Virus record (IMG/VR): IMGVR_UViG_3300009170_000033
Coordinates: 1 to 22,343 of that record
Strand: one strand, 5' to 3'
Length of the DNA: 22,343 nucleotides
From: a virus
Shown here: positions 956-19,862 of the stretch, one piece after another
Layout of the letters: each line of letters starts with the position of its first letter
How positions within the stretch are numbered: position 1 is the stretch's first letter
The notes under the pieces: model-generated
The model's database searches: none
Seen by the model: only the letters and a program-made list of their open reading frames with translations
Told to the model about the DNA's origin: nothing
Made by a program: the position numbers and the translations under genes

Positions 956-980
956 AAAAGCCCCGCAAGGGGCTTTTTTT
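956..980. terminator. Bidirectional intrinsic terminator
   Basis: A perfect 9-bp stem, AAAAGCCCC (956-964) and GGGGCTTTT (969-977), has a GCAA tetraloop and continues into a T-run ending at 980. It starts just after the gp32 stop codon. Its T-run contains the stop codon of the convergent minus-strand gene (979-981). Read on the minus strand it is also a GC-rich stem followed by T residues, so it can end both transcripts. Confidence 0.9.
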
Positions 981-1407
981 ATGCCCAACGAGGATATTCA
1001 GAAAATTTAGAACGTCTTTCTTCAAAAATTAAATTAGTTTGTTCTAATATTGGTTTTTCTTCAAAGTTGTTTGATGCTTTTGGAAAAGGAATCCATTTAG
1101 AACGTTGTTCATTGCCAAGTTCTTGTATTCCTTTTTGCATACCATCAACTGTTTCTTTTAATGCTTTATATTGTGTTTCTGGATCAAATTTAATAGTTAA
1201 ATCCATAGCAACTTTTGATGCTTCTGCAGTAGTATTGTTACTAATATCAACGTCGGCTGGATTATATGACATTGAGTCTGGTAATCGAATAATGTCTGGA
1301 TTACTTTGTATCTCTTGCATCTGCTCAGACGCAGACATAATAGAATTACTAAATGCTTGCTGCTCTGCAACTAGATCTAATACAACTTCATTTGGATTGT
1401 CTATCAT
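979..1407 (-). CDS. Unknown 142-aa protein after the frameshift gene
   Basis: The last gene of the minus-strand operon. Its ATG lies 3 nt beyond the TAA (1411-1413) that ends the frameshift extension of the gp26-like gene. Its own TAA lies in the shared terminator. The protein looks soluble and largely helical, has no signal peptide, transmembrane segment or cysteine, and ends in an aromatic/basic stretch (SKFSEYPRWA). I do not recognise a family. Tail-assembly chaperone genes are usually followed by the tape measure gene, but this protein is far too short for that, so it may be another tail or hub assembly factor. It is probably real, because it fills the space exactly and is tightly coupled to its neighbour. 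Confidence 0.7.
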   Translation of the reverse strand: MIDNPNEVVLDLVAEQQAFSNSIMSASEQMQEIQSNPDIIRLPDSMSYNPADVDISNNTTAEASKVAMDLTIKFDPETQYKALKETVDGMQKGIQELGNEQRSKWIPFPKASNNFEEKPILEQTNLIFEERRSKFSEYPRWA

Positions 1408-1410
1408 ATG

Positions 1411-2261
1411 TTAAAAACCTTGAATTTTATTATTTGCTTCTTTGTATTTCTTTTGTTCTTGATAATCTATTAGCAATGATACATAGATTTCACGCTCCCA
1501 CCAAAGCATATTATCTAAATCATACAGGTTCCAATTAAAATTATTTATTAAGGTAAAGTTTGTTGTAAAATAATCTTTTAAATCAAAAAACTTTACCGAA
1601 AGATAAAAAAATTTAAAAACCCGCTGACCTCCTTTGGACCATCTTTTGTTTCCAACATAGCATAAAGTTCGGGTTGATTTGCTAAAAAGTTTTCAAATTT
1701 ACCGAGCATAGACATTGGAAGGTTGTCTAACAAATCTTTTAAATCTTTTGGAATAAATTTGTTTGGATAATATATTTCGTTTTTTACAACAATCTTTTTG
1801 ATGCAACTTTTTATTAATTCTTCTTTTTCTAAAGAGTTTAGTTTAATTAAATTATTAATTGTTGGTGTTTCTAATACTAAATGTATTTCAGGTGAAATGT
1901 TTACAGTTTCTGTTACGATCTCATTTTTATGTTTAATATCAAAAATATAAAGTTGAAGTTTTTCTTCGTTACGTATTAGGTTTAATCGTTCATCAACACT
2001 TTTTGATCTTATTTGTAAAAATAGATATTCAGCATCTGCAAGACATAAATCTAATACATTTACACCTTGTGTATTTGTTTTTAAAATGTCAACTAATGCT
2101 ATTAAAGATAATTTTTTATTTTCTTCTTGTAAAATTATAGATATGTTTTTTGCATCTTTAACTCTAAAAGGTGTAAATGTAACTTTTTCTTTACTAAAAG
2201 GAAGTTCAGTCTCATAACGAGGCATTAGTTGTTCTATTGATTGTAAAATATTTGGATCCAT
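1411..2261 (-). CDS. gp26-like -1 frameshift fusion product (283 aa)
   Basis: Predicted product of a -1 shift at the U7 heptamer 1605-1611: residues 1-219 of the gp26-like protein joined to 64 residues read in the -1 frame, ending at TAA 1411-1413. The extension contains a conserved-looking segment, LDNMLWWEREIYVSLL, then a charged helical end. The -1 frame is open over the whole gap between the gp26-like stop (1593) and the next gene (1407), with only one internal ATG and no ribosome-binding site, so it is unlikely to be an independent gene. In lambda-like tails the analogous G and GT proteins share an N-terminus and the extended form recruits the tail tube protein. The same role here is inferred. 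Confidence 0.8.
1552..1597 (-). promoter_or_regulatory. Frameshift-stimulating stem-loop
   Basis: On the minus strand GGTAAAGTTT (1597-1588) and AAACTTTACC (1561-1552) form a perfect 10-bp inverted repeat with a 26-nt loop. The stem begins 7 nt after the last base of the slippery heptamer, within the usual spacer range for -1 frameshift stimulators. There is no T-run after it and it lies inside the -1 reading frame, so it is not a terminator. Confidence 0.7.
1593..2261 (-). CDS. gp26: gp26-like baseplate hub / tail assembly protein, zero-frame form
   Basis: 222 aa (T4 gp26 is 208 aa). The stretch from about residue 25, FTPFRVKDAKNISIILQEENKK, and the later segment LCLADAEYLFLQIRSKSVDE look like the T4 gp26 baseplate hub assembly family. 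The zero-frame product ends with three codons (Ile-Phe-Arg) after the slippery site. It follows the tube-fold gene by 13 nt with no clear Shine-Dalgarno sequence. The programmed frameshift at its end indicates a chaperone made in short and long forms rather than a simple structural part. The family assignment is from motif memory. Confidence 0.75.
   Translation of the reverse strand: MDPNILQSIEQLMPRYETELPFSKEKVTFTPFRVKDAKNISIILQEENKKLSLIALVDILKTNTQGVNVLDLCLADAEYLFLQIRSKSVDERLNLIRNEEKLQLYIFDIKHKNEIVTETVNISPEIHLVLETPTINNLIKLNSLEKEELIKSCIKKIVVKNEIYYPNKFIPKDLKDLLDNLPMSMLGKFENFLANQPELYAMLETKDGPKEVSGFLNFFIFR
1605..1611 (-). other. Slippery heptamer U UUU UUU (-1 frameshift site)
   Basis: Seven T residues on the minus strand, in the zero frame AAT TTT TTT ATC, give the ideal X XXY YYZ arrangement T TTT TTT (codons 217-219). 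After a -1 slip the next codon is TAT at 1605-1603. The zero frame stops three codons later (TAA 1595-1593), while the -1 frame stays open for 64 codons. Confidence 0.8.
1627..1635 (-). promoter_or_regulatory. Internal Shine-Dalgarno sequence upstream of the slip site
   Basis: AAAGGAGGT on the minus strand, inside the gp26-like coding region, ends 15 nt before the U7 heptamer. No start codon in suitable frame and spacing follows it. The gene starts in this operon have no comparable Shine-Dalgarno sequence. An internal Shine-Dalgarno element about 10 nt upstream stimulates -1 frameshifting in E. coli dnaX. The spacing here is a little longer. Confidence 0.65.
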
Positions 2262-9935: not shown

Positions 9936-10388
9936 ATGTTTACCAAAATGATTATGTTTGCTGCGTCTTTGGCATCACGCGGTTTGACAAATACTAAAAC
10001 AGATATTCCAACTAAACAATTAAGAATTCTTTCTTGTTTTGGTGGAGGTACTTTAACTACCACCTGTCCATTTTTAAAACAAAGTGCTGTAGATTCTACA
10101 AAACATTATTGTGGAGGGTGTGGATGTGGTGATAAACCACACACATGGTTAATGGCAGAAAGTACAGACTATTCAAAATTAGATTATCCAGTATTAAATT
10201 GTCCAATGCAAATGCCTGGATTTAGCAATTATGACCCAAATTTTAAACCAATAGAAGTTAAATTGCGAAAAGAGATGATTGAAGCATTTGATCCAAAAGA
10301 ATTAGAACTTATTCAAGTAACAATAGGATCGAGCGAAGAAAAAGAAAAATTGATTTCTCAAGTTAATAAAATTATTGAGAATTCATAA
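9936..10388 (+). CDS. Cys-rich protein of unknown function (possible metal or Fe-S site)
   Basis: 150 aa. Six cysteines lie in the first 90 residues (34, 44, 59, 62, 64, 89), centred on HYCGGCGCGDKPHTWL, with H57 and H69 nearby and a later YPVLNCPMQMPGFSNY block. This spacing suggests a bound metal or Fe-S cluster, though the arrangement does not match a standard zinc finger. The last 50 residues are a charged helical tail. There is no signal peptide. The position between gp7-like and gp13, where T4 carries gp8 to gp12, suggests a baseplate or tail component. The ATG at 9936 is 5 nt after the previous stop. In-frame ATGs at 9948 and 9954 are also possible starts. Confidence 0.7.
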   Translation: MFTKMIMFAASLASRGLTNTKTDIPTKQLRILSCFGGGTLTTTCPFLKQSAVDSTKHYCGGCGCGDKPHTWLMAESTDYSKLDYPVLNCPMQMPGFSNYDPNFKPIEVKLRKEMIEAFDPKELELIQVTIGSSEEKEKLISQVNKIIENS

Positions 10389-18643: not shown

Positions 18644-19057
18644 ATGATACCTACCACAAAATTATTACTAAAACACGGAGTTAAAAGTTTATTAGCCGAA
18701 AACAATAATTTTTTTAAACAAAACATTATTCAAACTTTGGCTATAAAATTAGATAAAACCGTAAAAGACTCTAAACACTTAGTAGAGCGTAAGTTATTTT
18801 TTAGGGATACAAATACTGAAAATACCAAAGAACTAAAAGAATTTTTAGACTTTATTAATAATTTTAAAGGTGGGGTTTATAATTTTAAAAATGGTTCAAG
18901 TATAAATATTATTGAATCTGAAATCCATAGTTTAAAACAATTGTTTGAATCTTTGAATACACAAAACAGACAAAAAATGATTTCAGAAATATTTGAAGAC
19001 GGAATCAAATTCAAAGAGCACATCAATTTTTCACAGAAGGTAACGAAACTATTATGA
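18644..19057 (+). CDS. gp68: Prohead core protein, gp68-like
   Basis: 137 aa, close to T4 gp68 (141 aa) and in the same place between portal and protease genes. It is helical and basic near the N-terminus, with LLAEN (residues 16-20), a possible gp21 cleavage site (Leu-Ala-Glu) after residue 19. The later MISEIFEDGIKFKEHINFSQKV region looks like the end of gp68. Core proteins are packed into the prohead and then cleaved. It overlaps the next small gene by four bases (ATGA). Assignment is by position, size and weak motif. Confidence 0.6.
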   Translation: MIPTTKLLLKHGVKSLLAENNNFFKQNIIQTLAIKLDKTVKDSKHLVERKLFFRDTNTENTKELKEFLDFINNFKGGVYNFKNGSSINIIESEIHSLKQLFESLNTQNRQKMISEIFEDGIKFKEHINFSQKVTKLL

Positions 19058-19218
19058 AAAACAACGTTCGGCAAATGATAAAAAATATCGTAGAAGAAAA
19101 TGCTGTTGCTTTTAAAGAACAAACTGGTAAAGTTTTGTTTGGAAAAGCTGCTCATCGTTTAGAAGAACAATACAAGAATGTAGCAAAAGATATTTTAAAG
19201 CCAAAGACTAAACAATGA
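19054..19218 (+). CDS. Small prohead core protein, gp67-like (54 aa)
   Basis: Short gene linked by ATGA overlaps to both neighbours (start 19054, stop 19216-19218, with the gp21 ATG at 19215). The protein is highly charged and helical. IVE at residues 12-14 is a possible gp21 cleavage site. A second half, KVLFGKAAHRLEEQYKNVAKDIL, looks amphipathic. T4 has the small core protein gp67 here. The two-sided overlap argues strongly that the gene is real. The gp67 name is tentative. Confidence 0.7.
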   Translation: MKNNVRQMIKNIVEENAVAFKEQTGKVLFGKAAHRLEEQYKNVAKDILKPKTKQ

Positions 19219-19862
19219 AATTAATTACGGAAATAACCGAAGACATTAAGTACATTAAGGAAAATCTCGGAAATGGCGAGAAGACATACTTTATTGAAGG
19301 TGTTTTCATGCAATCCGATACCAAAAACCGAAATGGGCGTATCTATCCACAAAACACTTTACTCAAAGAGTGCAAACGGTATATCACTGAATACGTTGCA
19401 AAGGGAAGAGCGATGGGTGAACTTAACCACCCAACTGGTCCTACTGTCAATTTGGATAGAGTCTCGCACATTGTAAAAGAACTTTATGAAGACGGCAAAA
19501 ACGTCTATGGTAAAGCCAAAGTTCTTGACACTCCAATGGGTAAAATTGTAAAAAATCTTATTGATGAAGGTGCACAACTTGGTGTATCCACTCGTGGTAT
19601 GGGTTCTTTAAAGTCCAAGAATGGATATCAAGAAGTTCAAGAAGACTTTATGTTAGCCGCCATTGACATTGTTGCTGATCCATCTGCTCCAAATGCATTT
19701 GTAAATGGAATCATGGAAGGTCGTGAATGGATGTTTGTCCATGGTAGTTGGCAGGAAAGAGAACACTCTGCTGCTAAAAAATTAATTCACGAATCTTCAA
19801 AAAGAAATTTAAACAAAAATATCGTTAAAGTATTTAACGATTACTTTCGCAAATTATCATGA
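19215..19862 (+). CDS. gp21: Prohead core protease gp21
   Basis: 215 aa (212 in T4). A serine protease that cleaves capsid and core proteins at (Leu/Ile)-x-Glu during maturation. Catalytic candidates are H72 in GELNHP and S125 in GVSTRG, with D151 or D155 in AAIDIVADPSAP as the acid. The first block, FIEGVFMQSDTKNRNGRIYP, and KVLDTPMGKIVKNLIDEGAQLGVSTRGMGSL are standard for the family. It is coupled by ATGA to the genes on either side. Confidence 0.95.
   Translation: MKLITEITEDIKYIKENLGNGEKTYFIEGVFMQSDTKNRNGRIYPQNTLLKECKRYITEYVAKGRAMGELNHPTGPTVNLDRVSHIVKELYEDGKNVYGKAKVLDTPMGKIVKNLIDEGAQLGVSTRGMGSLKSKNGYQEVQEDFMLAAIDIVADPSAPNAFVNGIMEGREWMFVHGSWQEREHSAAKKLIHESSKRNLNKNIVKVFNDYFRKLS

What the first reader, a model, noticed from the sequence alone, without database searches (positions are those of the whole stretch)
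1552..1635. Complete programmed -1 frameshift signal in a T4-type gp26-like gene
On the minus strand the following lie in order: AAAGGAGGT inside the coding region, 15 nt, the ideal slippery heptamer T TTT TTT in frame (1611-1605), 7 nt, and a perfect 10-bp stem-loop (1597-1588 with 1561-1552). The zero frame ends three codons after the slip site. The -1 frame continues for 64 codons to TAA at 1411-1413. All three known elements of a -1 site occur together, and no independent start serves the extension. Frameshifted tail-assembly chaperones are established for lambda-type and several contractile tails. I cannot tell from the sequence whether this exact case has been reported.
Basis: partly seen in the sequence, partly recalled or inferred. 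Interest (0 to 1): 0.88.

Follow-up and report, generated by a model that had tools for sequence, protein, structure and literature searches.

The report
Frameshift-made phage tail assembly chaperone
A T4-like phage from an environmental sample carries a spot where the ribosome is expected to slip back one letter, so that one gene yields a short and a long tail-building helper protein; this arrangement is already known in tailed phages, and this is a well-supported further example.

Summary
On the minus strand a gp26-like gene (2261-1593) holds AAAGGAGGT, 15 nt, in-frame T_TTT_TTT (1611-1605), 7 nt, a perfect 10-bp stem, and a -1 frame open for 64 codons. The extension matches the 'gp51' family (phrog_634, E=3.6e-16). 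Of 187 sequences compared, 184 contain the gene's end, and all 184 keep an in-frame T_TTT_TT[T/C] 0-6 codons before the stop with the -1 frame open (142 distinct regions). T4 gp26 matches the short product and T4 gp51 both parts. The predicted N-terminal part of gp26 resembles the HK97 tail assembly chaperone (Z 7.0; below the tool's caution level). Most likely this is a programmed -1 ribosomal frameshift making the long isoform of a tail assembly chaperone. The stem is clade-specific (11 of 20 T7-type regions). The kind is in print: Vladimirov et al. 2022, not held, seen only through citing papers. New member of a known kind. There is no protein or reporter evidence here.

The parts
1593..2261 (-). 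gp26-like gene, short product (TAC-N), 222 aa
   Evidence: Pfam PF12322 E=9.3e-23, 81.5 bits against a cut-off of 24.5; phrog_150 E=1e-23; anatomy
1627..1635 (-). SD-like AAAGGAGGT inside the coding region, 15 nt before the slip site
   Evidence: In the T7 clade (16 sequences) the codons AAG GAG show no synonymous change. Motif at this place in 16 of 20 T7 regions (no shuffled control was run)
1605..1611 (-). slippery heptamer T_TTT_TTT
   Evidence: T_TTT_TT[T/C] in 184 of 184 usable sequences
1593..1595 (-). zero-frame stop TAA, after three sense codons
1588..1597 (-). 5' arm of the 10-bp stem
   Evidence: codons +4 to +8 (this arm and the two codons after it) are the least synonymously changed 5-codon window of the fusion apart from the start codon, 0.06 of expectation
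1552..1561 (-). 3' arm of the 10-bp stem
   Evidence: 9-10 of 10 pairs kept in 11 of 20 T7 regions; this arm alone is not clearly constrained (codons +16, +17, +18: 1.22, 0.57, 0.00 of expectation)
1411..1605 (-). -1 frame extension, 64 codons and TAA (TAC-C, annotated as gp51 in relatives)
   Evidence: phrog_634 E=3.6e-16

Best explanation
The gene makes two proteins. Most ribosomes stop at TAA 1595-1593 and give a 222-aa short tail assembly chaperone (TAC-N). A minority, held at U_UUU_UUU by an upstream SD:anti-SD contact and a downstream hairpin, slip back one base and add 64 residues (TAC-C), giving a 283-aa TAC-NC. The short form is inferred to coat the tape measure protein during tail assembly and the long form to bring in tail tube subunits, as lambda gpG and gpGT do. 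Shown here: the anatomy, the homology of both halves, conservation of heptamer and -1 frame, synonymous constraint, and T4 counterparts gp26 (short) and gp51 (long). Inferred: the slippage itself, its efficiency, the role of each stimulator, and the chaperone activity.
For: Exact anatomy. Extension homologous to gp51. 184 of 184 usable sequences keep heptamer and open -1 frame (142 distinct regions); the +1 frame closes within 3-21 codons. 15 of 18 named phages have T_TTT_TTN and 18 of 18 an open -1 frame. Slip codons show no synonymous change in two clades (57 and 16 sequences), although TTC makes up 316 of 1380 and 34 of 219 Phe codons upstream in T6C- and T7-type genes. T4 gp51 holds both domains, T4 gp26 only the first. 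Fold resemblance to HK97 tail assembly chaperone.
Against: No protein, reporter or RNA evidence. The stem shows no change on both sides among the 11 regions that keep it, and 9 of 20 T7 regions keep only 1-8 of its 10 pairs. The 96-nt fold is not exceptional (z -0.87), and the 3' arm is not clearly constrained. An ATG is present early in the -1 frame of 118 of 118 T6C regions, so re-initiation could add gp51 there. Foldseek's own score for HK97 TAC is not significant (E 1.7). 26 of 142 regions lack an SD-like motif. Three Ackermannviridae lack the heptamer.
Confidence: 0.9

Rival explanations
1. The extension is a separate small gene (gp51), translated by re-initiation or coupling just after the gp26 stop, as most of the records I fetched annotate it.
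For: 15 of 18 named records list a separate CDS in the -1 frame. In T6C phages an ATG lies within the first 20 -1 codons in 118 of 118 regions, mostly at codon 3 or 6.
Against: 13 of 20 T7 regions have no ATG there, the window included. The heptamer is kept in 184 of 184, which a separate gene does not need. T4 gp51 is one protein with both domains.
Confidence: 0.06
2. RNA polymerase slips on the T run, and the fusion comes from altered mRNA and not from ribosomal slippage.
For: The window has seven Ts in an AT-rich genome.
Against: 122 of 142 regions have only six Ts followed by C, a short run for transcriptional slippage (own knowledge). The X_XXY_YYZ phase is kept throughout, and SD codons and 5' stem arm are constrained.
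Confidence: 0.05
3. The locus is frameshifted, but the products are true baseplate hub parts or a hub catalyst, as the old T4 names say, and not tail assembly chaperones.
For: PHROG and GenBank names.
Against: Fold likeness of residues 1-89 to HK97 TAC (Z 7.0, next unrelated row 3.1). Short-plus-long design. In HTVC008M and phiM12 the locus lies one gene upstream of a gene annotated as tape measure or like it. Citing papers treat the T4-like genes as TACs.
Confidence: 0.1
4. The T run and open -1 frame are chance in an AT-rich gene.
For: T_TTT_TTN occurs 12 other times in frame in 27 window ORFs; 96-nt fold z -0.87.
Against: Conservation in 184 of 184 and protein homology of the extension.
Confidence: 0.01

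Closest known systems
[quoted passage not shown] paper not held, seen through citing passages)
   Same: TAC-N gene of the gp26 family; poly-T -1 signal named for TAC-N genes of T4-like phages in PMC12846349
   Different: Whether that paper covers this clade, its SD and its stem could not be checked
Lambda G/GT frameshift (passages of PMC5009743)
   Same: -1 shift near the end of a chaperone gene gives a minor long form that shares the short form's N-terminus
   Different: Contractile-tailed T4-type phage; another slip heptamer (lambda's is recalled as G_GGA_AAG); no sequence likeness tested
T4 genes 26 and 51
   Same: Same two domains: gp26 short, gp51 long
   Different: Two separate, divergent genes and no frameshift
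TAC locus of Pseudomonas phage Adele and other Vandenendeviridae (PMC12846349, passages)
   Same: Poly-T motif at the end of TAC-N, -1 frame open in all alleles, extension usually annotated as a separate gene
   Different: GTTTTT motif, another phage family

Membership tests
Programmed -1 ribosomal frameshift site | In-frame X_XXY_YYZ heptamer near the zero-frame stop, with an open -1 frame | tested here: met
   conserved in 184 of 184
Programmed -1 ribosomal frameshift site | Stimulators under selection (internal SD, downstream structure) | tested here: inconclusive
   SD codons AAG GAG and 5' stem arm show little or no synonymous change in the T7 clade, but the 3' arm is not clearly constrained; stem kept in 11 of 20 T7 regions without change on both sides
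Programmed -1 ribosomal frameshift site | Fusion protein actually made | not testable with these tools
   Needs reporter or mass spectrometry
Frameshifted tail assembly chaperone (TAC-N/TAC-NC) | Two products sharing the N-terminus, the long one with a conserved extra domain | tested here: met
   At sequence level only: extension matches phrog_634; T4 gp51 has both parts
Frameshifted tail assembly chaperone (TAC-N/TAC-NC) | TAC fold | tested here: inconclusive
   2ob9 (HK97 TAC) Z 7.0 over 88 residues, 3fgx Z 7.5, next row 3.1; Foldseek E 1.7; Z under 8 is within the tool's caution range
[quoted passage not shown]
   In the window a 142-aa gene of unknown family and then a convergent gp32 gene follow; in HTVC008M and phiM12 a tape-measure-annotated gene follows after one gene
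Frameshifted tail assembly chaperone (TAC-N/TAC-NC) | Binds tape measure protein | not testable with these tools
   Needs biochemistry
T4 gp26 family (Pfam PF12322) | Score above the curated cut-off | tested here: met
   81.5 bits against 24.5

The most novel reading that the evidence does not exclude
Outside the T4 group, 'gene 51' is not a gene of its own but the -1 half of a frameshifted gp26. The slip site stays fixed while its stimulators are exchanged between clades: a shared 10-bp stem in 11 T7-type regions, another hairpin in L036, an 11-bp stem in the P-SSM2-like clade, and two SD distances. This would be a natural series for measuring how stimulators set the chaperone isoform ratio, and the T4 gene pair would be one later duplication that freed the phage from slippage.
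Probability: 0.4. Interest if true: 0.5.

Novelty: new member of a known kind. Interest (0 to 1): 0.35.

Why it matters
It makes one frameshifted chaperone gene out of a 'baseplate hub' gene and a supposed tiny neighbour: 0 of the 18 named records fetched mark a join. It would also explain the remark of Sullivan et al. 2010 (PMC3037559, passages) that cyanophage and marine vibriophage gp51 lack the first ~200 residues: those residues would be gp26, joined by slippage. The clade-specific stimulators make the isoform ratio testable.

Tried and rejected
Chance T run in an AT-rich gene: rejected by conservation, although T_TTT_TTN is common in this window. Stem as an ancient, general element: rejected, 9 of 20 T7-type regions keep only 1-8 of its 10 pairs. 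Covariation proof of the stem: not obtained. Among the 11 regions that keep it no pair changes on both sides; L034 (two pairs) and L035 (one pair) show double changes, but their stems are otherwise broken. In the P-SSM2-like clade an inner pair is A-C in 18 of 59 regions and another is T-T in 13 of 59, against the stem there; three regions have G-C in place of T-A but written off as too few. No control was run for how often SD-like motifs occur upstream by chance; in the T6C genes the Gly codon of the motif changes freely at its third base (1.99 of expectation). Profile comparison of seven gp26 sequences with T4 gp51 was too weak (probability 1.9%); the family scans served instead. Sequence search of solved structures gave nothing relevant. 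A literature search on ribosome profiling of cyanophages listed 8 of 10 papers, none on this by title. A tRNA scan of locus L008 found none. Vladimirov et al. 2022 could not be read; I recall its abstract as saying that frameshifting appears conserved in several T4-like groups while T4 uses separate genes 26 and 51. That is recall, consistent with the citing passages.

Full report
WHAT IS THERE. The minus strand carries a 222-aa gp26-like gene (2261-1593). Its last codons read AAG GAG GTC AGC GGG TTT TTA AAT TTT TTT ATC TTT CGG TAA. The heptamer T_TTT_TTT (1611-1605) is in the canonical phase, a perfect 10-bp stem begins after 7 nt, and after a -1 slip the frame is open for 64 codons to TAA 1413-1411. 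The only ATG in the shifted frame is 32 codons from its end.

WHAT THE TWO HALVES ARE. The zero-frame protein matches Pfam T4_baseplate (E=9.3e-23) and phrog_150 (E=1e-23). The 64-aa extension has no Pfam match up to E 0.1 but matches phrog_634, 'baseplate hub assembly catalyst', i.e. gp51 (E=3.6e-16). In T4, genes 26 and 51 are separate and divergent. T4 gp26 matches phrog_150 but not phrog_634; T4 gp51 matches phrog_150 over its length and phrog_634 over residues 147-246; both pass the PF12322 cut-off. So T4 gp26 looks like the short product and T4 gp51 like the long one.

CONSERVATION. 187 sequences were compared: 184 IMG/VR loci (three searches by gp26 protein, each capped; some contigs fetched twice), P-SSM2, P-SSM4 and the window. 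Three (L024, L052, L056) end before the gene does and were dropped. In all the other 184 an in-frame TTTTTTT or TTTTTTC lies 0-6 codons before the stop and the -1 frame is open: 176 close 54-66 codons on, 8 run off the contig, while the +1 frame closes within 3-21 codons. They reduce to 142 distinct regions, 122 T6C and 20 T7. Eighteen named phages, which I chose from hit lists for spread (P-SSM2 and P-SSM4 among them), were read as well: the -1 frame is open for 50-69 codons in 18 and T_TTT_TTN is present in 15; the three without it are Ackermannviridae, while a fourth member of that family has T7. None of the 18 records marks a join; 15 list a separate CDS in the -1 frame and 3 (ACG-2014b, T751, SH-Ab 15599) list nothing there (frames worked out by hand from the coordinates).

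STIMULATORS. SD-like motifs end 9-10 nt (96 of 122 T6C regions) or 15-16 nt (16 of 20 T7 regions) before the slip site; 4 further T6C regions have weaker matches and 26 of 142 none (no shuffled control). Synonymous change was measured in two clades: 57 of 59 P-SSM2-like regions, and 16 of the 20 T7 regions, the four most distant left out by choice. In both the slip codons show no synonymous change. In the T7 clade AAG GAG shows none either, and codons +4 to +8, the 5' stem arm and two codons beyond, form the least changed 5-codon window apart from the start codon (0.06 of expectation). The 3' arm there is not clearly constrained (1.22, 0.57, 0.00 at +16 to +18). In the P-SSM2-like clade codons +9 to +12, the 3' arm of an 11-bp stem, stand at 0.10-0.15, but one 5'-arm codon (+5) is free (1.41). 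The window's stem keeps 9 or 10 of 10 pairs in 11 T7 regions and 1-8 in the 9 others. L036 can form a different 9-bp hairpin at the same place (fold). Folding of the 60 nt after the slip site averages z -1.95 over 138 regions and is -4.4 for the window; the 96-nt fold of the window gives only -0.87.

FOLD AND ANCESTRY. An AlphaFold2 model of gp26 from 60 sequences has mean pLDDT 89.8. Foldseek finds no PDB match at E 0.001; HK97 tail assembly chaperone 2ob9 is listed at E 1.7. Among predicted viral proteins 49 match at E 0.001 or better, many named baseplate hub, one named tape measure chaperone. The second-look aligner puts 3fgx (Z 7.5) and 2ob9 (Z 7.0, 88 residues, rmsd 4.8) on top, the next row being 3.1. 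This supports a TAC fold but lies under the tool's caution level of 8. A 31-row tree of the N-terminal part puts the T4-group short and long genes, with a Klebsiella phage tandem pair, on one side of a branch supported 100/97, and all frameshift-type genes, the KVP40-like one included, on the other. The tree is unrooted, the short group within it is weakly supported (86/61) and long branches meet there; it fits one duplication that replaced the frameshift in the T4 group but does not prove the direction.

MECHANISM. Best reading: tandem slippage of two Phe-tRNAs on U_UUU_UUU, helped by the internal SD and the hairpin, gives a minor 283-aa TAC-NC beside the 222-aa TAC-N. Chaperone function and unequal isoforms are inferred from lambda (PMC5009743 passages) and from papers citing the T4-like TAC work. 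Re-initiation is possible as an addition in T6C phages, where 118 of 118 regions have an early ATG, but hardly in the window's type, where 13 of 20 lack one in the first 20 codons.

NOVELTY. Passages of PMC12846349 state that poly-T sequences are known -1 signals in TAC-N genes of T4-like phages, citing Vladimirov et al. 2022. PRFect (PMC10274946, passages) cites the same paper for T4-like phages that carry a short and a fused long gene. The original was not held. My literature searches were seen as listings, apart from the passages of the papers named here and of PMC12859696 and PMC9603447. They showed no description of this clade's three-part signal, but they cover only open-licence papers. 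Hence: a new member of a known kind, solidly supported, of moderate interest.

Noticed in passing
window 19054-19218 and 19215-19862 (+): The small ORF has an in-frame T_TTA_AAG five codons before its stop and its -1 frame is the next gene, which has its own overlapping ATG; probably ordinary coupling, but a second possible slip site.
   Followed up: no
L199, L200, L203 (Ackermannviridae YC, T751, RC-2014): gp26 ends in GCT TTC or ATT TTC with no canonical heptamer, yet the -1 frame is open for 50-69 codons; another slip mode or re-initiation may serve there.
   Followed up: no
L207 1201-2492 (Klebsiella phage CP-p-KP-21068): A long and a short gp26-family gene lie in tandem on one strand, unlike the divergent 26 and 51 of T4; they fall with the T4-group pair in the tree.
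   Followed up: partly
window 979-1407 (-): A 142-aa protein just after the -1 frame stop has no PHROG match and only a sub-threshold Pfam match; a GC-rich inverted repeat with flanking A and T runs follows it, before the convergent gp32 gene.
   Followed up: no
window 9936-10388 (+): A 150-aa protein with a cysteine-rich stretch (CPFLK...CGGCGCGDKPH) and no convincing family match, lying among structural genes.
   Followed up: no
P-SSM2-like T6C clade, second slip codon: The second slip codon is TTC in 57 of 57 sequences although TTT is the commoner Phe codon upstream; the C also starts the next -1 codon (Arg), so coding in the -1 frame may hold it.
   Followed up: partly
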